A DNA stretch of 64,000 nucleotides from Rhodoferax sp. GTDB lineage: Bacteria > Pseudomonadota > Gammaproteobacteria > Burkholderiales > Burkholderiaceae_C. Position numbers and translations under genes: made by a program. The notes under the pieces are model-generated. The model had not been told where the DNA came from, ran no database searches, and saw only the letters and a list, made by a program, of their open reading frames with translations. This document shows, piece after piece, positions 1-12,793 of this stretch (positions within the stretch are counted from its first letter, which is position 1; every line of letters begins with the position of its first letter). Location: the NCBI GenBank assembly GCA_020048895.1, contig JAIFLV010000052.1:1-64000 (forward strand), given 5' to 3'.

Positions 1-239
1 CGCCGTACCACGCCAATGTGCCGAGCTTTGGCGAATGGGGCTACGTCATTGCCAGCCACCGGCCCTGGCGCAATCCGACGGTGCTGCCGCCCGGGCTGCG
101 TTTTTTAAGTCTACAGACCCTGCCCTTGCTGTTTGATTTTCCCAACGACATGGTGCGCGTACCCGCCGAAGTGAATCGCCTGTCGAACCAGGTGCTGGTC
201 AGCACCTATGAGCACGAGTGGGGACGCGCGCTGCCCTGA
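1..239 (+). CDS. Membrane-type spermidine synthase / polyamine aminopropyltransferase, C-terminal end (5' truncated by window)
   Basis: Open from window start; C-terminus ...LRFLSLQTLPLLFDFPNDMVRVPAEVNRLSNQVLVSTYEHEW is typical of long membrane-associated spermidine synthases. Confidence 0.75.
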   Translation, partial: PYHANVPSFGEWGYVIASHRPWRNPTVLPPGLRFLSLQTLPLLFDFPNDMVRVPAEVNRLSNQVLVSTYEHEWGRALP

Positions 240-240
240 C
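83..240 (+). repeat. Direct repeat copy 1 of spermidine synthase 3' end (putative attachment site)
   Basis: 83-142 is identical to 11698-11757 (60 bp); the remainder matches with about 13 mostly synonymous differences. Confidence 0.9.
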
Positions 241-485
241 CAATCGGGCTGGTGGGCATGAAACCACGCGGCGATTTTCTAGCTGGCAAGCACACAGGGG
301 CGTGGGGTCGGATCCCGATTCAGGACAGTGAAGTGGACGGAGCGCTCAATCTGACTACGAAATCGGGCTCTGACCCCAGGCACCGGCGCAGTCGGCGCAA
401 GGGGAGCCCAAAGATCTTCGGTCTGATCTACCTGGCTGGCATCAGCGACACGCCCTGTCGCACACATTCAGAGAATTGCAGGTCT

Positions 486-2249
486 ATGCCAAGTGACCTT
501 TCATCCGCAAACTTCGCTTCCGCTGAACTCCACGCCTTTCAGCATGATTTGTTCCCGCTGGATCCTTGGGGTGCCGGCCATGTGGTGGGCATTGTCGAAA
601 GACCTTGCGCTGGAATAGCACGGGCCTTGATTGGACCGGTGAGCCTTGGGTGCTGGCATATTCCCCAAGGTGCCGTGGTTCGATGCTTGGCTGTCGCAGA
701 GGACAGAACATTTGCGTCCTTGGCGTTCTTGCCGCAGACTCTCTTTAACGAGGCACCGGGGGAGTTTTGGACGAGGGTGGTAGATAGCATCACCTCAGCC
801 TGCGAAAGTGCTATGTCTTCCAAGGACCCCGGTATGTGCCGCACGCCTCCCGACTGCGTGAAGAGTTGGTCATCCCCATTGGTCTGGATTCCAAATCCAC
901 TATGTGGTGATCCCGTCCATGCCTCTGTCCGTTCACTCTCTCAATTGCACGCTTACAGACCGACCGAAATGGGGCTTATCCACGATCTTGCCGATCCCAT
1001 GCAGATCGAGGCACAAGCCCATGCGCATGCTTGCGAGCAAATTGCATTTGGCGTGCGCCGCTTACTCCAGGCACTTGATCCGGCACTTTTCCAAATTCTG
1101 GTGCAGCGCCCAAAGTTGAGCATCACGGTCGCGCACCAAATCCTGTGCATGGCCAAACGGCATAGCCCGAAGGCCGTCACATATGCTCTGCAAGCAATGC
1201 GAACAGAATCGCAGGGACTCCTGCACCTGATTGCAAGCGACAACCCAAAGAAGGACGCAGAAAAGGTGCGGGAAGCTGTTTTCAGTGGCCAGAGCTTGCC
1301 GGATGCCTTTGTGAGTCTTGGGATCGCCAAAGCGGCACACCGAAAATCCCTCTGCAAGCCAGTGTGTCGCAGCGAGCAATGGAAAGAGCCGGAACCGTCA
1401 TTGAGCGATCTTCCGATGGCGGGTCAGGACTGGTTAGCTGCGATGCGCCTGACCCGGCACGTGCCACTGCACGACAAACACGACTGGACCGAATTCAGCC
1501 GGACTGTTCAGCTTGTTCTTGAGCAAGGTTTCCAGAAGGAGTCCACTGCGCTGCAATTGTTGACGTGCTGCACCCGACCGACCGTCCGAGGAAGTGGCAC
1601 TCGGTTGGAGCGGATCATTTCACACGCCCGGACGCTTTCAAACGGTGTCAAGGGGCTAGCCAATATGGCTGTCACTCTTGATGATGTTGTTTCCAAGTTC
1701 CTGGAAACGGTCGGAGCGGCTGGTGACGATGGACCTTATGGAACAAACTTCCCTTTGTCCCTTGATGCACAAGACTCTTGGCAGCTTGCTGCGGGTGTCG
1801 CGCAAATCACTGGCAAATCGTTGTGCGAAATCCTGGCGAGCCTCTTCGATGCACATCCAACGCTCCCTCATTCGTTCGTAGCCCCTGAACATCTCAGCGT
1901 GTATCCGCTCAACAGCCTGGATCTGGTGGTTGCTCACGGCGCTGACTGCAACACTTGCCTCCAACACCATAGGTTTGCGTTGCGCTATGTGACCGGCGGC
2001 GTTGCGCTCTACGGCCTGCGATCTGGTTCAGAAGCGGTCGGCACGATTGCCTTTCAATATGACGTTTCTGAAGACAAGCCAAGGGTGCAAGTTCAAGAAA
2101 TCACGACCAAGGCCGAAACTGACTTGGCATTTTGTCGTTTGACGCGATCGCTGGAGGATGCATTCAATACAGACCAGGCAATTCCAGCCTGGGTCGCGTA
2201 CCAGGATCAGTGCGCTCAATGGCGCCGACGCGCCACTTCTGCGTCATGA
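486..2249 (+). CDS. Hypothetical protein, ~587 aa, possibly PcfJ-like at C-terminus
   Basis: Long ORF; ATG at 486 chosen over 252; C-terminal 'CNTCLQ...GGVALYGLRSGSEAVGTIAF' weakly resembles PcfJ-like C-termini. Confidence 0.55.
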   Translation: MPSDLSSANFASAELHAFQHDLFPLDPWGAGHVVGIVERPCAGIARALIGPVSLGCWHIPQGAVVRCLAVAEDRTFASLAFLPQTLFNEAPGEFWTRVVDSITSACESAMSSKDPGMCRTPPDCVKSWSSPLVWIPNPLCGDPVHASVRSLSQLHAYRPTEMGLIHDLADPMQIEAQAHAHACEQIAFGVRRLLQALDPALFQILVQRPKLSITVAHQILCMAKRHSPKAVTYALQAMRTESQGLLHLIASDNPKKDAEKVREAVFSGQSLPDAFVSLGIAKAAHRKSLCKPVCRSEQWKEPEPSLSDLPMAGQDWLAAMRLTRHVPLHDKHDWTEFSRTVQLVLEQGFQKESTALQLLTCCTRPTVRGSGTRLERIISHARTLSNGVKGLANMAVTLDDVVSKFLETVGAAGDDGPYGTNFPLSLDAQDSWQLAAGVAQITGKSLCEILASLFDAHPTLPHSFVAPEHLSVYPLNSLDLVVAHGADCNTCLQHHRFALRYVTGGVALYGLRSGSEAVGTIAFQYDVSEDKPRVQVQEITTKAETDLAFCRLTRSLEDAFNTDQAIPAWVAYQDQCAQWRRRATSAS

Positions 2250-2689
2250 CAACTATCACAATAGGTTTTTCTCCAACGGCTACCGCGCAGCAGGCCGGGA
2301 GCGCCACATTGCTCACAAATGCATCGACTCTCGCGCTCAGCTTGCGCCTTTTGTTCTTGCAGTACTTCCGAAACCCGTCCGGTGACGTAGAAACGAAGGG
2401 TTCCGGTTTTTTCCTTGATCTGGCCCACCCGCGGCCAACGCTCTTTGGCAACACCCAGAGCAATCAATCCATCAATTTCTGCCTCGCAGGCTTGGCACAA
2501 ACGATCAACCAAGCCGAACCAGCCGTCGCCGCACTCGATTCCCCACTCATCATAGGGACCCGTGTCATCTTCCAAGTGACTTTCGGCGCAAGATTGGTTC
2601 TCAGGCTCGGGATCGACGAGCCGCTTAACCGGTGAGCGAAAGAATTTCGGATATTGCCGTATCAGTTCAGCCTGCAGGTGTGGGGTCAT
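2216..2689 (-). CDS. Hypothetical protein with C-terminal Cys-rich motif
   Basis: 157 aa; 'DEWGIECGDGWFGLVDRLC...RVGQIKEKTGTLRFYV...CEQCGAPG...YCDSC' pattern of a phage/island-associated conserved hypothetical. Confidence 0.6.
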   Translation of the reverse strand: MTPHLQAELIRQYPKFFRSPVKRLVDPEPENQSCAESHLEDDTGPYDEWGIECGDGWFGLVDRLCQACEAEIDGLIALGVAKERWPRVGQIKEKTGTLRFYVTGRVSEVLQEQKAQAERESRCICEQCGAPGLLRGSRWRKTYCDSCHDAEVARRRH

Positions 2690-2847
2690 TGTCTTGGCTT
2701 TCTATAGGGTGTGCGCCCATTGTGTCCCGAGCATAGGCCCATCAGGGGCATCTCAGTTTCCAGCTTGGACCGGACGCATTTGATTGTGGATAGCAATGCG
2801 TCACTTTGTGTCGGGTCCGTCTCCATCGCCAATAGGGGATTGCAAAC

Positions 2848-3348
2848 ATGATTCTGTTTCTCGACTTCGACGGTGTCCTACACCCGCAATACGAAGGCCA
2901 ACCAGTGCCCGTCGACGTGGCGTTCTGTCACCTCCCGCGCTTTGAGACCGTCATGCGCGATTTTCCGAGTGTGGAAATAGTCATCAGTTCTACGTGGCGC
3001 GAGCAGTTCAGCCTCGACATTCTTCGTGCGAAGTTCTCGCCCGATATTGCGGAGCGCATCACCGGCACCACTCCATTGGCTGCAGAGGCTTTACCGCCCC
3101 ATATGGTGGAAGTGCGGGAATGGGAAATTGTCACTTGGTTGCGAGTCAACAATCGACAAGGCGAAGACTGGATTGCACTCGACGATTGCGCTTGGCAGTT
3201 CAAAGACCACCGGGACCGGGTGGTGGCTTGCACGGGTTACATCGGGCTGGATTGTGGTGCTGAATGCCGATTGAGGGCAATGTTTTTCGCGCCTCAAACT
3301 ATCGGAAATTTGACCTACACGAGGTACCCACGGTGCCCGCCCGCTTGA
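2848..3348 (+). CDS. HAD-superfamily protein (HAD domain of the 'Swiss Army Knife RNA repair' type)
   Basis: N-terminal MILFLDFDGVLHP motif I; 'ISSTWRE'; 'WIALDD' motif. Confidence 0.7.
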   Translation: MILFLDFDGVLHPQYEGQPVPVDVAFCHLPRFETVMRDFPSVEIVISSTWREQFSLDILRAKFSPDIAERITGTTPLAAEALPPHMVEVREWEIVTWLRVNNRQGEDWIALDDCAWQFKDHRDRVVACTGYIGLDCGAECRLRAMFFAPQTIGNLTYTRYPRCPPA

Positions 3349-3356
3349 TTGCGACA

Positions 3357-4025
3357 CTAATCTTGTGTGAGCCATTCCACGATGTGCTCTTTCACTTTGC
3401 CGCGGCTGTCTAATGGCGAGTAACGGCTCAGATGCGGAAGCCCGTAGACACGAACTTTACGACCGAGATGTGTCGCAACGAATGAACGACACTTCCAATT
3501 GCCATGTCCAGCCAAGATAATTGACTCAAATGCGTTCGAACCGAACTTGTCGAATAAAAAACGATAGGGTGATCGACTGGAATTTCCGAAAACAAGAATG
3601 CGTTTTGGCTGAACGATCTCCAATAGCTTTTCATGAACGGGCCAACAGAGGGCAGCATCTTCTGGAAACTGAATTCCACTCGCATCCCGGCTCTGCATAA
3701 AAATCAAATTGCTTGCACAAACATCTTCAATATAGTGATTCCAGACTTTCAGTAGCTCGGCAAGCCGAATCTGAAGAGGAGCTAGCGTTCCATCCCTATT
3801 ACCCCAGTCTGTTGCCAGATAGTCATTGTCAATTTTGGCGGGAAGCTTTTCAAGATGTTCCGCAAGAGTTGGACCTTGCGTCCCACCAGGATTCAAACCC
3901 AAAATGTAGACATCACCTTTCGTGATCGTTTTGGCCGCGCTGTACAAAACGGCACCGCTTCTGTTCAATAGGTTTTGCTGAGAGAGCAGTCCGCTAACTT
4001 TTTTGACAAGTTCATTTGTATCCAC
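3357..4025 (-). CDS. Uracil-DNA glycosylase superfamily-like protein
   Basis: 'VYILGLNPGG' and 'YGLPHLSRY' resemble UDG motifs A and B; 222 aa. Confidence 0.5.
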   Translation of the reverse strand: MDTNELVKKVSGLLSQQNLLNRSGAVLYSAAKTITKGDVYILGLNPGGTQGPTLAEHLEKLPAKIDNDYLATDWGNRDGTLAPLQIRLAELLKVWNHYIEDVCASNLIFMQSRDASGIQFPEDAALCWPVHEKLLEIVQPKRILVFGNSSRSPYRFLFDKFGSNAFESIILAGHGNWKCRSFVATHLGRKVRVYGLPHLSRYSPLDSRGKVKEHIVEWLTQD

Positions 4026-4113
4026 TATTTTTCCTTTGATTTGAAGCTTCCAGAAATTCTTGAGTGCTATCTAGATTTGCGGCATTTCGAAATGGGAGCA
4101 TGGCTTCGCTGCT

Positions 4114-5103
4114 TCAACGGCAATATGTTACAGCCAGTCGCGTGACCTCACTCACCCCATCCCCAAAACTATTGAGCCACCGCCCGAGCACATCAGTGTC
4201 GGCCACCGTCGCCATGATCTCATACCCATCAGGCAGTTCTTTGTATGTCTGGTCCGTCGACAACGGGCATTCCAAGATGTGCAACCCGTTGGGCTTGTCG
4301 ATGCGAAACCGCAAGCGAATCATTTTGGGCGGGCCGTCACCGAACCCCATGTCGTCGTTCAACTGCTGCAATTCAAAATCTTTCGGGCGATCAAACTGGA
4401 AGGTTGACGCTTTTGCGGACTTGATCCGGTGCAGTGCCAGGCTGCGGTTGTCGTCGTAGCCTTCAAAGCGGCAGGCCAAATACATGCGCGGGCCTTGCTG
4501 CACCAAGCCCAGGGGCATTACGCGGTAGCCGCTTGCTTTTGTCACGTTGGCGTTCTGATAGGTCACATCGAGCCAGCGGTTGTCATACAAGGCGTCGCTG
4601 ACCTGCTGAAATACTTCTGGCATGACTTTGGGCGGAAGCAGCGGCTGGCCGGTGCTGACGACACGAATCTTGTCGAGCCATTGCCGTTCAAGCTGCTTCG
4701 TGGCACTATCATCCAGACGGCCGCGTGCCTGACTGAAGAAACCCTCCATGGACTTCATGAGCCGGGCTGGCAACAGATGGCCGAGCTGTTGTTCGGCAAG
4801 TGTCAGCAGCAATGATTCCTGTGGACTCAGGCCGCCAATGCTCAGGGCTTTGGCTGATTCTTTCCAGCGGTAGCGGTATGGCTTGCTGCGCTCATCGCGC
4901 TCAATATCGAGTGTTTTGAAATCAGGGTCAGACAGTGTTTCGAGCAGGTGCTGAATGGTGCGCAGCTCGCGTGTGAACCGGGTGTCGGTGTCGATCAGCT
5001 TTTGGCGCAACTCTGCGGCAGTGACGGCACGGTCCTTTCGGATGCGCTTCAACAGCTCCAGCGTGAGTTGCAGGGTTTCCAGGGAGTCAGGGCGAATTGA
5101 CAT
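4114..5103 (-). CDS. WYL-domain transcriptional regulator
   Basis: 329 aa, N-terminal HTH region, central 'YQNANVTKASGYRVMPLGLVQQGPRMYLACRFEGYDDNRSLALHRI' typical of WYL. Confidence 0.85.
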   Translation of the reverse strand: MSIRPDSLETLQLTLELLKRIRKDRAVTAAELRQKLIDTDTRFTRELRTIQHLLETLSDPDFKTLDIERDERSKPYRYRWKESAKALSIGGLSPQESLLLTLAEQQLGHLLPARLMKSMEGFFSQARGRLDDSATKQLERQWLDKIRVVSTGQPLLPPKVMPEVFQQVSDALYDNRWLDVTYQNANVTKASGYRVMPLGLVQQGPRMYLACRFEGYDDNRSLALHRIKSAKASTFQFDRPKDFELQQLNDDMGFGDGPPKMIRLRFRIDKPNGLHILECPLSTDQTYKELPDGYEIMATVADTDVLGRWLNSFGDGVSEVTRLAVTYCR

Positions 5104-5115
5104 GGTGTCGGGCGG

Positions 5116-6612
5116 CTAAAGTTTCAGATCAGTACGGCCTGCAAACACCTGCCACAGACGTACCATGGCATAGGTGTCAAGCCAGCAATAGGCCAGCAGT
5201 TGTTGTTCGATTTGGGTCTTGCGCTCTGGCAAAGTTTTGGGGTGAATGGCCTCCAAATAGGCGTCCATCGCCATGCCGCCGTCTTGCACGCCATCCAATG
5301 CGTCATATCGCAGTTCGGGCACCACGGCTGGTAAAACTTTCTTGATGCTCCAGCTTCCCTGTTGGCTGGGGTGGTAGTAACGCTTCCTGGCAATGGGCAG
5401 CAAATCCACCATGCGGGCATTGATAGCCAGTAGCGCATCACGCAAGCTTGGGTATCGCGTTGCAAGCTCGTGAATGCGCGATGCCTCAAAGGCGGCGTTG
5501 TAAACATACACCGGGCCACTGGTGCCGCAGCTTGCAATCAAAGCGTAGGCGAATGGCTCAGCGGGATCAGCACCTGAGAGATCAAGAAACCCCTGGTGGT
5601 CAAGCTGACCCGATTCAGACAGGGTATGCAGGCTGAACTGGAAGCTGTTTTGCTGATATGGACGGGTGCCAGCCCAGATGGGCACGGCAAACTGGATGGT
5701 CTCGAAGTCCAGAAAATAGGCAGGCAGCCCATGCATGGCCAAATCGGCGGCGGCACCTTCGGCATCGAAAAACACCGTGTTGGCCAGGGTGTGGGCTTTG
5801 ACTCGCAACTGCCTGGGGTTGAGCAGGTCGTCAGGGACATCTGCCAACTCGATGACGCCCTGTGATGCCAGCTCCTGCGCCTTGGCACCAAAGTACGGCA
5901 GCCAAAGGACTGGGTACTGCGCCTTGGGCTCATCCTGGCTGCAATGGTCATAAAAGCCGCAGGCATAGGGCGTGTCGCAATGTGCTCCTGTATCGATAGC
6001 TGGTGGCGCAATACTGGCGCTGGTTAGCTGGGCTTTTTGTATCCAGGCTTTGACCTCTTCGGTGCGTGAGAAGGCTTCTGCCGTCAAGTCGTTTTCTTTC
6101 AGCAAACCGCTGTAATCCTCGTTGCCCGAATAGGTCCATGAACTGTCAATGTGCGCCAGGGCAATGCTGTGCAACATAACACCTGCCGACTGGGCCACAA
6201 ACGCTTGCACGGCAACGTCGTCGCGGTGATAGTCTTTGACACTGGTGGAAGATTTGACTTCTACCATGCGCCAGACCTGCTGGCCGTCGATGGTCTCGGG
6301 CAGCATGACGTCGGCAAAGGCCAGCGCACCAGCCGCACAAAACCCTGCTTCAAAAATCGGGTTGGGGTGTTTCAACAGTTGGGTGCTGCGCTCGAAGGCC
6401 TTTTTGAAACCATCGCTTTGCACGTCAATCAGGGCACCCAGGTTTTTGGGGTCATAGATGCGGCGGGCAATGTCTCCGACCTGATGGCCAATCTGGAAGC
6501 TGGCTTCGGTGGCGGCAGAATCCTCGCGCAACTCCGGTCGGTGAATCTCCAGCCACAGCCGCTTGGGGCACTGGCGCAAGGCCAGCAGTTTTGATTTTGA
6601 AAAGTTGCGCAA
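5116..6612 (-). CDS. DUF2779 protein, Cas4/RecB-like nuclease fold with exonuclease-like C-terminus
   Basis: 'SKSKLLALRQCPKRLWLE', 'YACGFYDHC' (candidate Fe-S Cys cluster), 'YFLDFETIQFAVPIWAGTRPYQQNSFQFSLH'. Confidence 0.8.
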   Translation of the reverse strand: MRNFSKSKLLALRQCPKRLWLEIHRPELREDSAATEASFQIGHQVGDIARRIYDPKNLGALIDVQSDGFKKAFERSTQLLKHPNPIFEAGFCAAGALAFADVMLPETIDGQQVWRMVEVKSSTSVKDYHRDDVAVQAFVAQSAGVMLHSIALAHIDSSWTYSGNEDYSGLLKENDLTAEAFSRTEEVKAWIQKAQLTSASIAPPAIDTGAHCDTPYACGFYDHCSQDEPKAQYPVLWLPYFGAKAQELASQGVIELADVPDDLLNPRQLRVKAHTLANTVFFDAEGAAADLAMHGLPAYFLDFETIQFAVPIWAGTRPYQQNSFQFSLHTLSESGQLDHQGFLDLSGADPAEPFAYALIASCGTSGPVYVYNAAFEASRIHELATRYPSLRDALLAINARMVDLLPIARKRYYHPSQQGSWSIKKVLPAVVPELRYDALDGVQDGGMAMDAYLEAIHPKTLPERKTQIEQQLLAYCWLDTYAMVRLWQVFAGRTDLKL

Positions 6613-6814
6613 ATTGCGTGCCTCCCTGTTTTTGATCTCAGTCTATCGCCCAACCCGCCTCGAGCAAAGCGTCCACATCGTCAAACCACAGTTTTTCTTC
6701 GTCGGTTTTGGTTCCTGTGGGTTGATCTACTGATTGTTCACAGAAGTGCGATGCGCTGTGTCGCATGTCTTTGGCCACTTGGCACATCGACCAACGCTGC
6801 GAGACAACCCTGAA

Positions 6815-7216
6815 TTACGATGAAACCAGCTCAAATCGCCGACCATCAAAATGCCAGCAATGAAAGCCGTCTTGCCGCTGCAGGCCAAGCACCAATGATT
6901 GTGGTGATCTGAAGTACGGCGAATAGCTTGCAGAGACATCGTCCATCACCGGTGGGTCCAGACATTCGACCACCACCGCTGATTCTCCGTACTGCGGCCA
7001 TTTGACATATTTCAAACCTGGCTGCCAGCGCACCAGATCACCGGGGCGGAACTTGCCAGGCTCGGTACCATGGATGCGGCGGTACGCATCGCGCAGTGCC
7101 TCGATCTTTTGTGCCCGTGCCTCGCCCGGCGCATCAAGTTCGGGCTGAGTGTTTGCAGCAGCCAGACCATGCAGCATGCTTTGCACGGCCGGATCCAATC
7201 TACGACGTTGATTCAT
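6815..7216 (-). CDS. Small island protein B, paralog of the gene at 7213-7632
   Basis: 'FRPGDLVRWQPGLKYVKWPQYGESAVVVECLDPPV...HCWHFDGRRFELV'; ATGA overlap with upstream gene. Confidence 0.7.
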   Translation of the reverse strand: MNQRRRLDPAVQSMLHGLAAANTQPELDAPGEARAQKIEALRDAYRRIHGTEPGKFRPGDLVRWQPGLKYVKWPQYGESAVVVECLDPPVMDDVSASYSPYFRSPQSLVLGLQRQDGFHCWHFDGRRFELVSS

Positions 7217-7632
7217 TTGGATACCTCCACATCATGCGTCACTTCAAAACGACGGCCATCAAAATGCCAAGTGTGAAAATCACCATCAGCACCCTGGATG
7301 CCAAGCACCAAATTCAATGGCTCGCGGTACAGGTTGGTTCCGTCGAGTTCCTTGCTGGTGTCGAGAACCGGTGGATTGAGTACATCCATGACGATGGCAG
7401 GTTCGCCATAGGATGGATGCGCCCTGTTTTGCATGCCAGACTTCCACTGAACAATCTGGCCTGGGTGAAAACCCATTGCGGGCGCCAACGCAAACCGACG
7501 TTGAAACGCCAGCAGGTTCTCATCGCGATCATTGACCAGTTCTTGTGCAAGTTCAGCCGTGTGGTCCGCGCTCTTGAGCATGTTGTCAAGCAGGTGGCTG
7601 AAAGCTGCGTCATTTTTGTATTTGGGTGCCAT
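7213..7632 (-). CDS. Small island protein A, paralog of the gene at 6815-7216
   Basis: 'FHPGQIVQWKSGMQNRAHPSYGEPAIVMDVLNPPV...HTWHFDGRRFEVT'; start re-set to MAPKYKND at 7632. Confidence 0.7.
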   Translation of the reverse strand: MAPKYKNDAAFSHLLDNMLKSADHTAELAQELVNDRDENLLAFQRRFALAPAMGFHPGQIVQWKSGMQNRAHPSYGEPAIVMDVLNPPVLDTSKELDGTNLYREPLNLVLGIQGADGDFHTWHFDGRRFEVTHDVEVSK

Positions 7633-7664
7633 GGTTTTTCCTCGTTCTTGTGGATGGTGACCGC

Positions 7665-9938
7665 TCAGGCGGTCACCGGGATATTTCTGTTTGCTGCGGG
7701 CATGCCATAGGCGCTCACGTACACGGATGAACCTGCCTGACCGGGGCGCCTGCTCACCAACTCGGCATGCAGCCGCTCCAACAGCTCCTGCGGCGTGGGA
7801 ATGTGGCGCAGCAGGCGAAACTGGCGAGTGACAGGTGCGAAGTCGCCCGGCGTCAGACCATTGAGCCGCTGGCGCACCAGCGACTGCAGCGGTGCTGCTG
7901 CTTGCATGCTGCCGCCGAGCAAGTGCAGTTCCTGCAAAAAGAACGCCCAGCACTGTGAGGCGGTCATGGCATGGAATGCAATCTTCCAGTCAAAGCGACG
8001 CAGGCTTGCCGGGTCGAGCTTTTCCAGCAAATTGGTGGTGCAGATAAACAGGCCCTCGTAGTCCTCCATCTGGGTGAGCAACTCATTGACTTGGGTGATC
8101 TCCCAGGAATGCCTGGCCTCGGCGCGGGATTGCAGGAAGGAGTCGGCTTCGTCCAAAATCAATACGCTGGGCTCGGCTGCGGCCGCAGAAAACATCTCGG
8201 CAATGTTCTTTTCAGTGCCGCCAACATACATCGACAACAGGTCCGAGCCGCGCCGCAGTACCACGGGCAGTTCTAGCGCGTGCGCTAAGTAGCGTGCCAG
8301 AGCGGTCTTGCCAGCCCCCGGTGGGCCGTAGAAACACATGGAACCACCTGGTGCCACTCGCAAGGAATTCACCAGTTGGGCAATGGGTACGTTGGTGTGT
8401 AGGTAGGCCAGGTCATACGCGGTGGCCATCGGGCGACTGGCGCGCGGCCTGGGCTGATTCAATAGTTTGGCGGATCGCTCCAAGACCTGCAGAACCCGCT
8501 TTTGCGCAGGAGCAGCATTGCCTTGAGCGAGTGTTTCAGTCTCGACAAGTCTGGCGACTTTGGCGGCCCGCTGCATTTGCGCTGGGGTGAGGTTGGCGCA
8601 TTCAGCCAAGTCTTCAAGCCACGAATCGTCATCACCCTGTTTGGCGATTTCGGAATTGGCCGCGTTGGCGTTGACAATCCCTTGCAGGTGGTGACAGGCA
8701 ATTTCGCGGCGCACAGCCCTTGGCGGCATGGTGAGATGCACTGAATAGTCAAAACGCCTGCGGTATGCCGGATCCAGTGCACTGACAGCATTGGTGATCC
8801 AGATGGATGGCACCGGGTTTTCCTCCAGTGCACGGTTCACCCACGCTTTTCCGGGAACCTCACCACGTTCGAGCATGTCTTCGACCTCATCGAACAAGAC
8901 CAGAGCGTTGCTTCGACGGCTTAACAGGCGTTGACACAAATTGAAAGCTTGCAAGCGCTCGATTCCCCGAATTGGAGCACCTTCATCGTCTGCACAGGCC
9001 ACTTCGTAAAGGTCAGCTTGCAGCACCTGGGCAATCACGCTGGCCAATTCAGTCTTACCCACACCGGGTGGACCGTACAGCAGGATATTGGTGCCATGAA
9101 GACCTTGACGCATGGACTCACGCAGGATGCCTGAGATGATCGACACCTCATCGGCCAGGTGTGGAAAGTGCGATGGATTCAGCGCGCTTGGGCTGCGCGG
9201 TGTGAAGAAATGACCGACCAGTGGCTCAATGGATTCGTGCTGATCCAGCATCAGGGCGGCAAGACCACGAGGCAGCTCCAGATAGTCTTCGAGGTCTTGT
9301 GCGTCTTTGGCAAGCTTCAGTATGCCGGTGCCGCGCAAATTGCCGTGCCGGCGAAAGGCACGTTGCAGATCGGCAGTGTGGCAGCACGTGAGGCAGGCCA
9401 TCAGAGCGACGCAGTCTTTTTCGCTGCCCAGTCGCAGTCTCATTGGAACAACGTTATCGTGGAATTGCTCGTCGCCATCCAGCAATATCAATACGCAAAG
9501 AATGACCATGTCGGTCTCTGTGAGATTCAGCAACTCGCCCAGCGCCTGCACGTTCTCAAACATGGGGTGAGAAAACTCAAGTACCTTGCTGCTAACGTTG
9601 CTCTGTGCTGCTGCCAGCAATTCTGCGGTCCAGCGCTTCTTGCGACGCTGGTCCGCCTCTGGGCCATGCTCCTGATCGTCGTCGTAGTTGATCGGATCGT
9701 CATCGCGTCCATGCCAATAATCCGGATTGCCAACTTTGAACAGTCTGCGCAGGTCTGAATCTTGGGGGAGTCGATCAGCTTTGTTGTACTTCAAAATCAA
9801 GGCCAGGACCCAGCGTTGAATCAAAGGCATCAAAGCGTCGTCGCCACAAGTTGTGGATACGCCTTTGCCCAAAGGCGCGAGTTGAAGTGTGTAGGCCAAT
9901 GTGGAGACCGGGGTGACAGCGTTTGTGCGTTGCGACAT
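7665..9938 (-). CDS. AAA+ ATPase with two AAA modules, 757 aa
   Basis: Two Walker A motifs (GPPGVGKTELA, GPPGAGKTALA) and Walker B motifs (LVLFDEVED, VLILDEADS). Confidence 0.9.
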   Translation of the reverse strand: MSQRTNAVTPVSTLAYTLQLAPLGKGVSTTCGDDALMPLIQRWVLALILKYNKADRLPQDSDLRRLFKVGNPDYWHGRDDDPINYDDDQEHGPEADQRRKKRWTAELLAAAQSNVSSKVLEFSHPMFENVQALGELLNLTETDMVILCVLILLDGDEQFHDNVVPMRLRLGSEKDCVALMACLTCCHTADLQRAFRRHGNLRGTGILKLAKDAQDLEDYLELPRGLAALMLDQHESIEPLVGHFFTPRSPSALNPSHFPHLADEVSIISGILRESMRQGLHGTNILLYGPPGVGKTELASVIAQVLQADLYEVACADDEGAPIRGIERLQAFNLCQRLLSRRSNALVLFDEVEDMLERGEVPGKAWVNRALEENPVPSIWITNAVSALDPAYRRRFDYSVHLTMPPRAVRREIACHHLQGIVNANAANSEIAKQGDDDSWLEDLAECANLTPAQMQRAAKVARLVETETLAQGNAAPAQKRVLQVLERSAKLLNQPRPRASRPMATAYDLAYLHTNVPIAQLVNSLRVAPGGSMCFYGPPGAGKTALARYLAHALELPVVLRRGSDLLSMYVGGTEKNIAEMFSAAAAEPSVLILDEADSFLQSRAEARHSWEITQVNELLTQMEDYEGLFICTTNLLEKLDPASLRRFDWKIAFHAMTASQCWAFFLQELHLLGGSMQAAAPLQSLVRQRLNGLTPGDFAPVTRQFRLLRHIPTPQELLERLHAELVSRRPGQAGSSVYVSAYGMPAANRNIPVTA

Positions 9939-10073
9939 GACTCTTTCCTTTCAGTTGAAAGCCAAGTATCCATACCGAAACGACGATTTGTGTCGCACGC
10001 AACAACATGACGTGCGTCTCGTTCTGTCACATCCCTGGGGATACTTGCTGCACCTGAAATTGCCGGAATTACC

Positions 10074-10913
10074 ATGAACCAGATTGATGTGTACTACACC
10101 CCGCAACAGGTTTCATGCCCGTCGGACAGTTCATCGCCTAGCCCCCGCAAGCCTGAGTGGGTGGTGAAGGAATGGTTGTATCGCAAGCTGCCTGTGCGGG
10201 TGATAGCACCCGTTGCAGCCACGCGTGATCAGATCGCTTTGGCGCATCACCCGCGTTATGTCGATGGCATTCTGAGTTGTGAATTGATGAATGGGTTTCG
10301 GGGGCGGAACAAGGACGTCGCGCAATCCTTGCCCTGGACCTGCGGCTCGTTTTTGTCGGCAGCGCGAGGTGCATTGGAAAATGGACTGGTGGCTTGCTCA
10401 CCTACATCGGGGTTTCACCATGCTGGTGTGAAAACCGCTTTTGGCTACTGCACTTTCAATGGTTTGATGGTGGCTGCGCTCAGTTTGAAAGCCGAGGGAA
10501 AAGTGTGTCGAGTCGGGATTCTCGACTGCGATCAGCACTTTGGCGATGGCACCGCTGAGATCATCGCGGCAAAGCGGCTCGACTGGATTCGCCACCTATC
10601 CAAAGAATACGTTGACCCAGATGAAGCCGAAGCATTTATTGCCCAGCTACCGGAGTTGGTAAGGAGCTTTGTTGATTGTGATTTGCTCATGTACCAAGCG
10701 GGTGCAGACCAGCATGTGAACGATCCATTGGGTGGTTTTCTGACCACCGAACAACTTGCCAGACGCGACCAAATCGTATTTACGGTGGCCAAGGCGATGG
10801 GCGTCCCCGTAGTCTGGAATTTGGCTGGCGGGTATCAAGATTCGCTGTACGAAGTTCTCAAGATACATACCAATACGATGTTGGCGTGCTCGGCCGCATA
10901 TGGCTGTGACTGA
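10074..10913 (+). CDS. Histone deacetylase / acetylpolyamine amidohydrolase-like hydrolase
   Basis: 'SGFHHAG', 'GILDCDQHFGDGT', 'YQAGADQHVNDPLGG', 'NLAGGYQ' match class I/II HDAC-fold active-site motifs; 279 aa. Confidence 0.85.
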   Translation: MNQIDVYYTPQQVSCPSDSSSPSPRKPEWVVKEWLYRKLPVRVIAPVAATRDQIALAHHPRYVDGILSCELMNGFRGRNKDVAQSLPWTCGSFLSAARGALENGLVACSPTSGFHHAGVKTAFGYCTFNGLMVAALSLKAEGKVCRVGILDCDQHFGDGTAEIIAAKRLDWIRHLSKEYVDPDEAEAFIAQLPELVRSFVDCDLLMYQAGADQHVNDPLGGFLTTEQLARRDQIVFTVAKAMGVPVVWNLAGGYQDSLYEVLKIHTNTMLACSAAYGCD

Positions 10914-11033
10914 ACTTGTGCTCAGACGGATACGTCACGACTTGACGCACAGAGCCAGACAATTGCAAGTTGACGACAAGTTGGGCTTGCGTTCTATGGG
11001 CAAAATCAATTCTGCAACGACTGGGAGAAACAG

Positions 11034-11645
11034 ATGAACGAAAACGCGGTTCTGAAATGTGGTGGGTGTGGTGCGAATCTTCAGTATTCAGGTGAAGACC
11101 AGGCTGCGATTGTGTGCGGATTCTGCAATGCAACGACAGTGGTCGCACCGGACGCTTATGAACCCGCAGAGGCGAAGCCGCCGAGTCGAGAAGAGATCAT
11201 TGAAAAACTGCAACTGCTGCACAAAATCGCCGGGGGCATGGTGACAGCGGTTTTCGCTATCTTCTTCGTCAAGATCTTCGGTACGCCCGTCGGAATCGTC
11301 GCATCCCTCGTCTACTTCGGCCTGGACCTTGCATTGGTAGCCCCAGATTCAAGAGTCGGCAAGGCTCGCATGGCCCCCGCCGAATCGCTTTTGATTTGGG
11401 CACTGGGTTCCAAGTGGAAACCGCGCTTGGCGGCCACTGAACTTGGGACCTGTACCTATTGCGGGCTTCAACATGCTGAACAGGGTGGCGCATGCATGAA
11501 AGGTCCAAACAAGACACATCTTGTTTTGGAAATCACAAAATCAGGCAGCGTAGACCTTGCCGGCCTTCAAAGCGTTTCGTTGCTGCAGGATTGGTCAATT
11601 TGGTTGATTGCAGCCACCATAGGGTTTTGCTGGTTCCTTTCGTAA
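11034..11645 (+). CDS. Zinc-ribbon membrane protein, hypothetical
   Basis: CGGCGANL...CGFC and CTYCGLQ motifs plus hydrophobic helices. Confidence 0.6.
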   Translation: MNENAVLKCGGCGANLQYSGEDQAAIVCGFCNATTVVAPDAYEPAEAKPPSREEIIEKLQLLHKIAGGMVTAVFAIFFVKIFGTPVGIVASLVYFGLDLALVAPDSRVGKARMAPAESLLIWALGSKWKPRLAATELGTCTYCGLQHAEQGGACMKGPNKTHLVLEITKSGSVDLAGLQSVSLLQDWSIWLIAATIGFCWFLS

Positions 11646-11697
11646 CAACCCTTTTGAAGACCAAATGGGGGTCGGATGCAGTGTGTGGCGCCACAAC

Positions 11698-11855
11698 GCT
11701 GCCGCCCGGGCTGCGTTTTTTAAGTCTACAGACCCTGCCCTTGCTGTTTGATTTTCCGAACGACATGGTGCGCTTGCCCGCTGAGGTGAATCGCCTGTCG
11801 AATCAGGTGTTGGTCAGCACCTACGAGCATGAATGGGGGCGGGCCCTGCCCTGAA
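11698..11855 (+). repeat. Direct repeat copy 2: displaced spermidine synthase 3'-end fragment
   Basis: Matches 83-240; translates to PPGLRFLSLQTLPLLFDFPNDMVRLPAEVNRLSNQVLVSTYEHEWGRALP. Confidence 0.9.
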
Positions 11856-11874: not shown

Positions 11875-12793
11875 CTACTGCGGGTCCTGCGCATCGTCAA
11901 AGTGCGCCTCCACCCCACTGGGCAGCATCTGGATGGTGGCGCGCAAGCCAGGCACGCTGCGCATCAGGGCCTGTTCGACGCTGGTGCGCAAGGTGGCGGC
12001 ACGTTGCAGCGTCCAATTCGACGGCATGTGCATGTGCAGATCCACAAACCGGCGCTGCCCGGAGCGCCGCGTGATGACGTGGTCAAAGCGGATCGCGCGC
12101 TGGTCGTAGCCAGACAGCACCTTCGCAATTTCACGCAGCACTTCGGGCTCCACCGCTTCGTCCATCAGTCCCTGCGAAGAGCGCCACATCAGGTGGCCGC
12201 CTTCCCACAAAATATTCAAGGCCACGCCAATAGCCGCCACGGCGTCCAGCCACAGCCACCCCGTCAGCGCCACGCCCGCCAGACCTAACACCACGCCAGC
12301 GGAGGTCCACACATCGGTGACCAGGTGCCGGGCATCGGCTTCGAGCGCAATCGAGCGGTGCACTTTGGCCACGCTGAACATTACCCAGGCCAGCAGGCCG
12401 TTGAGTGCCGAGCTCAAAATAGAAAGCGCCAGACCCCAGCCGAGCTCCTGCAAGGGCTGCGGCTCCAGCAGTCGCGCAATGGCGGCCCAGATGATGCCCA
12501 CTGAAACGCCCACGATCAGGATACCCTCAAAGCCGGACGAGAAATACTCGGTCGGCCTTGTGGTGCCCGTAGGGATGGTCCTGGTCTGCAGGGCGCTGCG
12601 CGATGGTCACCATCAGCAAGGCAAACAAGGCGCTTGCGAGGTTGACAAAGGACTCCATCGCATCCGACAGCAAGCCCACCGAGTCGGTGATGTACCAGGC
12701 CAGCGTTTTGAGCACGATGGTGGTGACAGCCACTGCAATGGAAGCCCATAGCAAGTGTTTTGGCGTCAGGAAGCGTGTGGGAAGAGTGGCCAT
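11875..12793 (-). pseudogene. Cation diffusion facilitator (CDF) transporter, frameshifted
   Basis: N-terminal part (12527-12793) ends DHPYGHHKADRVFLVRL*; continuation EYFSSGFEGILIVGVSVGII is in another frame; 4-bp tandem duplication TCGGTCGG at 12548-12555. Confidence 0.85.

What the first reader, a model, noticed from the sequence alone, without database searches (positions are those of the whole stretch)
83..11855. 11.6-kb island inserted at the 3' end of spermidine synthase, leaving a displaced gene end
83-142 and 11698-11757 are identical over 60 bp; beyond that the copies differ at about 13 sites, nearly all silent (one V->L). This is what a site-specific element produces when it integrates in a gene 3' end, supplies a replacement terminus and pushes the native terminus to the far side. 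A small symmetric core, GTCT-AC-AGAC (109-118), sits inside the identical block. The host gene still ends in frame at 239. No recombinase is visible, so it may be mobilised in trans, decayed, or acquired by homologous recombination.
Basis: partly seen in the sequence, partly recalled or inferred. Interest (0 to 1): 0.7.

Follow-up and report, generated by a model that had tools for sequence, protein, structure and literature searches.

The report
Integrase-less defence-like island behind speE
An 11.6-kb block of probable anti-phage-type genes sits at the end of a polyamine-synthesis gene in a Rhodoferax-like bacterium and carries a replacement gene end, as some viruses and mobile islands do, but it has no visible enzyme that could have put it there.

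Summary
Window 83-239 and 11698-11854 are a 157-bp direct repeat: 60 bp identical, then 13 differences in 97 bp (11 silent; the other two make one V->L codon). Homology stops at the stop codon in both copies. The identical block is the least conserved stretch among relatives, so its identity marks a recombination boundary rather than constraint (Fisher p=0.002; no relative pair of similar divergence matches it).

Between the repeats lie about 11 genes of lower GC3. None is a recognisable recombinase or transfer gene. Five form a conserved AAA-two small proteins-DUF2779-WYL cassette, also found at other sites in two relatives; a reduced AAA/DUF2779/WYL set occurs on plasmids. It is probably defence-type cargo.

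No displaced speE end was found in other genus or family genomes. The best reading is a CIME-like island: integration into the speE 3' end with a replacement terminus, as for e14 in icd, recombinase lost or acting in trans. RecA-mediated integration fits nearly as well. The proposed core is no better than chance, no sister element was found, and the contig starts 82 bp before the repeat in a MAG lacking the rest of speE, so integration versus an excised circle is not proven. Interest is modest.

The parts
1..82 (+). speE (polyamine aminopropyltransferase, ~520 aa form), 3'-proximal coding sequence left of the repeat; the contig begins at base 1
   Evidence: own contig G000:C90 starts at window base 1
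83..142 (+). left repeat, 60-bp block identical to 11698-11757; holds rare Leu codons TTA and CTA
143..239 (+). left speE terminus in use (presumed supplied 3' end); 13 differences to the right copy, 11 silent
304..377 (.). REPIN-like inverted pair of GGGGTC.GA.CCCGATT half-sites, one of several pairs in this genome
486..2249 (+). 587-aa protein, no Pfam/PHROG/PADLOC/NCBIfam family; diverged paralog on own contig C128 gives only a weak PcfJ-like hit
   Evidence: structure model uninformative
2216..2689 (-). 157-aa protein with a Cys-rich C-terminus, unassigned
2848..3348 (+). HAD_SAK_2 phosphatase-like protein
   Evidence: E=2.7e-25
3357..4025 (-). 222-aa protein, unassigned (only a non-significant uracil-DNA-glycosylase hit, E=0.37)
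4114..5103 (-). WYL-domain regulator, last gene of the five-gene cassette
5116..6612 (-). DUF2779 protein with a Cas4/RecB-like N-terminus (predicted nuclease)
6815..7216 (-). small cassette protein 1, paralog of the next
   Evidence: 79% and 66% to the two relatives
7213..7650 (-). small cassette protein 2
   Evidence: 71% and 59%
7665..9938 (-). tandem AAA ATPase, IetA-like
10074..10913 (+). histone-deacetylase-family protein
   Evidence: E=6.9e-31
11034..11645 (+). 203-aa protein with weak zinc-ribbon similarity, found in no other of 400 family genomes
11684..11695 (.). perfect 12-bp palindrome TGTGGCGCCACA, 2 bp outside the right repeat (post hoc, weak)
11698..11854 (+). right repeat: displaced, 5'-less speE terminus (attR-like), 20 bp from the CDF stop codon
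11875..12793 (-). flanking CDF cation-efflux gene (not part of the island); 4-bp frameshift relative to G013

Best explanation
The island is accessory DNA that entered as a circle carrying a short 3' piece of a related speE gene and recombined with the resident speE end. The crossover in the 60-bp block left a complete hybrid speE on the left (resident body, incoming terminus), the cargo, and the resident terminus stranded on the right beside CDF. The geometry is that of a tyrosine-recombinase element with a gene-3'-end target. As no recombinase is recognisable between the ends, it is best described as CIME-like: a passenger with attL/attR-like ends whose integrase was lost or acted in trans. 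Cargo: a mobile, probably anti-phage AAA/DUF2779/WYL cassette plus HAD, deacetylase and unassigned genes. Shown: the repeat, the recombination boundary, lack of a known recombinase on the contig, accessory distribution. Inferred: that recombination was site-specific, that the donor was a circle, which end came from outside, and the defence role.
For: Homology starts inside the gene and ends at the stop codon, and differences are almost all silent. The block identical between the copies is the most variable stretch among relatives (70% vs 75-76% for the tail); 0/60 vs 13/97 differences gives p=0.0019; none of 126 relative pairs of similar tail divergence has an identical block. The two termini resemble each other (86%) more than either resembles any relative compared (at most 82%), so the incoming end came from a close relative. 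Island GC3 is 0.61 against 0.73 for flanking genes. The cassette is conserved en bloc at other sites in two relatives and in reduced form on plasmids. None of the island genes was found behind speE in the genus loci read. The published e14/icd case matches closely: icd alleles with and without e14 differ by 12 SNPs, 10 synonymous (PMC4759930).
Against: There is no recognisable recombinase, excisionase or relaxase between the repeats, and the intergenic gaps are too short to hold a decayed integrase. No second element uses this site: one displaced end in 228 speE-bearing family genomes, none in phages or viral contigs and no similar tail on plasmids. No core inverted repeat exceeds background. 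The 60-bp identical block requires resident and incoming blocks to be the same although the tails differ by 13%. Relatives at the discriminating sites do not say which terminus is native (168 vs 146 matches).
Confidence: 0.5

Rival explanations
1. RecA-mediated integration. Incoming DNA with a piece of a related speE recombined by homology at the 60-bp identical stretch (one crossover of a circle, or homology on one side plus illegitimate joining on the other). No site-specific recombinase was ever involved, and the block is identical because it was the crossover or repair tract or is duplicated recipient DNA.
For: No recombinase and no core. An identical tract of 60 bp bounded by a 13% diverged tail is what a homologous crossover or conversion tract leaves. 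The site is not a recurrent target.
Against: It does not explain why incoming DNA would carry just the last 157 bp of the gene, or why homology ends exactly at the stop codon; a one-sided event would have to place the right join at the exact start of the block.
Confidence: 0.27
2. Acquisition en bloc of a xenologous full-length speE plus the island from a relative. The native speE lost its 5' part, and only its terminus remains beside CDF.
For: Both termini evolved under selection for coding function (11 of 13 changes silent), as expected of two once-complete genes. The left terminus is slightly closer to the nearest relative (8 vs 3 discriminating sites). Relatives carry different genes behind speE.
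Against: The identical 60-bp block has no explanation without an extra conversion event. Only 82 bp of the left speE body can be seen.
Confidence: 0.13
3. Assembly artefact. The 60-bp identical block was resolved wrongly. The alternative pairing is an intact speE-CDF locus plus an excised circle, or an island from another locus.
For: The contig starts 82 bp before the block, and the rest of speE is missing from the MAG. Pairing across a 60-bp exact repeat is ambiguous for short k-mers. Two other apparent second tails in relatives were contig-end effects.
Against: The termini differ by 13 bases, so reads or read pairs that span the 60-bp block can phase each junction. The simple circular alternative would still make the island a speE-attachment element.
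Confidence: 0.1

Closest known systems
Prophage e14 in E. coli icd (PMC4759930)
   Same: Target is the 3' end of a housekeeping gene; the element supplies a working replacement terminus; alleles with and without the element differ by about a dozen mostly silent changes (12 there, 13 here).
   Different: e14 is a prophage that excises through 11-bp direct repeats; here the identical stretch is 60 bp and no phage gene or recombinase is recognisable.
CIMEs, cis-mobilizable elements (PMC5704250; Pavlovic 2004, Bellanger 2011 as cited there)
   Same: Has end repeats like attL/attR and no recognisable integration or transfer genes.
   Different: CIMEs are explained as decayed ICEs or IMEs, often in tandem with one at the same site; no such partner or remnant was found here.
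dusA integrase islands (PMC4482086)
   Same: Genomic islands in a protein-coding gene.
   Different: Target is the 5' end of dusA and a dedicated integrase is present (from the abstract).
AAA-DUF2779-WYL gene sets on plasmids of Rhodoferax antarcticus, Diaphorobacter, Sphingobium, and the full cassette in Rhodoferax STA_46 and G012
   Same: Same AAA, DUF2779 and WYL genes (DUF2779 64%, 62% and 39% identical on the plasmids, 78% and 70% in the two relatives).
   Different: Different sites and neighbours (Nmad2/Nmad3 in both relatives, an FtsZ-like gene in STA_46); the two small proteins were seen only in STA_46 and G012; no flanking repeats of 20 nt or more at the STA_46 site.

Membership tests
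Site-specific integrative element (tyrosine or serine recombinase type) | direct repeats at both ends, one inside a gene 3' end that is restored | tested here: met
Site-specific integrative element (tyrosine or serine recombinase type) | encodes an integrase near one end | tested here: not met
   no recombinase among the island proteins scanned (Pfam; PHROGs 68; NCBIfam 17); none of 16 tyrosine or 1 serine recombinase match lies on this contig; an unrecognised family is not excluded
Site-specific integrative element (tyrosine or serine recombinase type) | same site used by other elements or empty in relatives | tested here: inconclusive
   undivided speE ends are widespread, but no same-species empty site is available and no second element was found
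Site-specific integrative element (tyrosine or serine recombinase type) | excised circle / reconstituted attB | not testable with these tools
   needs DNA or reads; no separate attB or attP contig in the assembly
CIME | att-like ends with no integration or transfer genes | tested here: met
CIME | derived from, or sharing its ends with, an autonomous ICE or IME | tested here: inconclusive
   no element with the same end found in own genome, 400 family genomes, plasmids, phages or viral contigs; one genome per species was searched
Prophage or satellite | phage structural or replication genes | tested here: not met
   significant PHROG hits only to families of unknown function
Known anti-phage systems (PADLOC) | complete described system | tested here: not met
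   only domain-level hits to IetA, WYL, Cas4; no IetS partner was identified

The most novel reading that the evidence does not exclude
The island is an autonomous integrative element whose recombinase is of an unrecognised family, for instance the unassigned 587-aa protein encoded next to the left repeat, with the speE 3' end as its dedicated target.
Probability: 0.05. Interest if true: 0.7.

Novelty: new member of a known kind. Interest (0 to 1): 0.3.

Why it matters
If the reading is right, the speE 3' end joins the protein-coding genes used as island attachment sites, and it documents a recombinase-free island carrying a mobile AAA/DUF2779/WYL cassette that I found no description of as a system (no held paper has both DUF2779 and WYL). 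The cassette, recurring on plasmids and chromosomes with variable partners, is a reasonable candidate for a defence assay.

Tried and rejected
Second tails in G083, G100 and G498 look like contig-end or strain-contig effects; G498 is an exact 141-bp contig overlap. Plasmid hits to the tail are four large alphaproteobacterial or Gemmatirosa replicons at <60% identity, one annotated as a polyamine aminopropyltransferase; none was inspected further. The GTCT-AC-AGAC core and longer inverted repeats are not above background. Assignment of the native terminus by relatedness was inconclusive. Single-sequence AlphaFold of the 587-aa protein gave pLDDT 38.5 and no usable fold, so no fold search was run. 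I considered GGGGTCGGAT at both edges as element termini; on the left it belongs to a genome-wide REPIN-like family, and on the right only about 10 bp match. An ancestral speE-ECF-kinase-PQ-loop-CDF order later replaced by the island could not be excluded: only one relative (G013) shares the speE-CDF neighbourhood. A literature search for speE as an attachment site gave nothing specific.

Full report
WHAT IS THERE. The window is the first 64,000 bases of contig C90 (69,266 bp) of a MAG-like assembly (4.6 Mb, 188 contigs, 91% complete). The genus is probably Rhodoferax: the nearest full-length cassette match in named genomes is a Rhodoferax MAG, but no tool named this genome, so this is inference. 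The direct repeat is exactly as reported: 83-239 against 11698-11854, 60 bp identical, then 13 differences, 11 silent plus one two-base codon change V->L, with abrupt loss of homology at 82/83 and straight after the stop codon. Nothing else in the assembly matches it.

IS IT MORE THAN A CONSERVED GENE END? Yes. Across 31 relatives the stretch corresponding to the block at 83-142 is less conserved (70% to this genome) than the rest of the terminus (75-76%), and in 528 pairs of relatives it averages 68% against 75%. Zero differences in 60 bp beside 13 in 97 bp is therefore unexpected (Fisher p=0.0019). Of 126 relative pairs with tail identity of 80-95% none has an identical block, and below 90% tail identity the maximum is 90%. 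So 142/143 marks a recombination boundary: the blocks share a recent origin, the tails do not. The block also holds the rare leucine codons TTA and CTA (0.6% and 1.9% of Leu codons in flanking genes).

WHAT LIES BETWEEN. About eleven genes with GC3 0.61 against 0.73 in the flank: an unassigned 587-aa protein, a 157-aa Cys-rich protein, a HAD_SAK_2 protein, an unassigned 222-aa protein, WYL, DUF2779, two small paralogs, a tandem AAA ATPase, a histone-deacetylase-family protein and a 203-aa protein with weak zinc-ribbon similarity. No integrase, resolvase, relaxase or phage structural gene is recognisable among them. The assembly has 16 tyrosine-recombinase and one serine-recombinase matches, none on this contig. 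The five genes AAA-small-small-DUF2779-WYL are a conserved cassette: they recur in the same order in Rhodoferax sp. STA_46 (60-79% identity) and in a lake MAG (59-75%), there followed by Nmad2 and Nmad3 genes. AAA-DUF2779-WYL occurs in that order on plasmids of Rhodoferax antarcticus and Diaphorobacter; in Sphingobium the same three kinds of gene are neighbours in another arrangement. DUF2779 is present in 4 of 103 genus genomes. The 203-aa protein was found nowhere else in 400 family genomes. This looks like mobile accessory cargo; a defence role is inferred from the IetA-like ATPase, the Cas4/RecB-like nuclease part, the WYL regulator and the neighbours, and was not tested.

RELATIVES. Of 103 genus genomes 30 have this form of speE and, contig-end effects apart, none but ours has a second terminus. 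In the family sample 228 of 400 have it, again with no displaced end that survived checking except ours (the list of places was cut, but the per-genome counts were read). Relatives were read up to about 15 kb downstream of speE, many much less: no 15-mer of the speE end recurs except one chance-like match. Only G013 among them shares the speE-CDF neighbourhood (CDF 90% identical); it has an ECF sigma factor, a protein kinase and a PQ-loop-like gene between them. So the island was not seen at this site elsewhere, but a clean empty site from the same species is not available.

MECHANISM. The geometry (homology from inside the gene to its stop codon, a working hybrid gene on one side, an orphan terminus on the other, mostly silent differences) is what integration at a gene 3' end leaves. 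It closely parallels e14 in icd, where the alleles differ by 12 SNPs, 10 synonymous (PMC4759930). With attL/attR-like ends and no integration genes it fits the description of a CIME in PMC5704250, except that no related autonomous element was found. The part not shown is that a site-specific recombinase did it: there is no candidate gene, no sister element, no core site above background and no evidence of a circle. A homologous crossover at the 60-bp identical tract would leave almost the same scar. I give site-specific integration with a lost or trans-acting recombinase 0.5, RecA-mediated integration 0.27, a xenologous speE with truncation of the native copy 0.13, and assembly error 0.10. These are judgements, not computed.

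LIMITS. The contig starts 82 bp before the repeat, and the rest of speE is not in the MAG. Pairing across an exact 60-bp repeat is the one adjacency short reads can get wrong; the alternative pairing is an intact speE plus an excised circle. The relatedness of the two termini to other species does not tell which is native. Several of the boundary statistics were computed after seeing the pattern and should be read as support, not as a pre-planned test.

Noticed in passing
L123 (own genome C128) 6732-10223, minus strand, and 4291-6144: A 1163-aa reverse transcriptase-Cas1 fusion (RVT_1 plus Cas1) lies close upstream of a diverged (28%) paralog of the island's 587-aa protein.
   Followed up: partly
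window 304-377: REPIN-like inverted pair belonging to a dispersed family with 15 half-sites in this genome, mostly as pairs 56-57 bp apart.
   Followed up: partly
window ~12551-12573: CDF gene carries a 4-bp insertion relative to G013 that breaks its frame: pseudogene or assembly error.
   Followed up: partly
window 11684-11695: Perfect 12-bp palindrome TGTGGCGCCACA 2 bp outside the right repeat; one of 26 such palindromes in the window.
   Followed up: partly
L079 8790-9884: An FtsZ/tubulin-family gene directly upstream of the AAA-DUF2779-WYL cassette in Rhodoferax sp. STA_46, with Nmad2/Nmad3 genes downstream.
   Followed up: no
L121 (own genome C139) 7683-9158: A second DUF2779 gene (49% identical) beside a large apparent P-loop NTPase gene and a 1441-aa ORF.
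   Followed up: no
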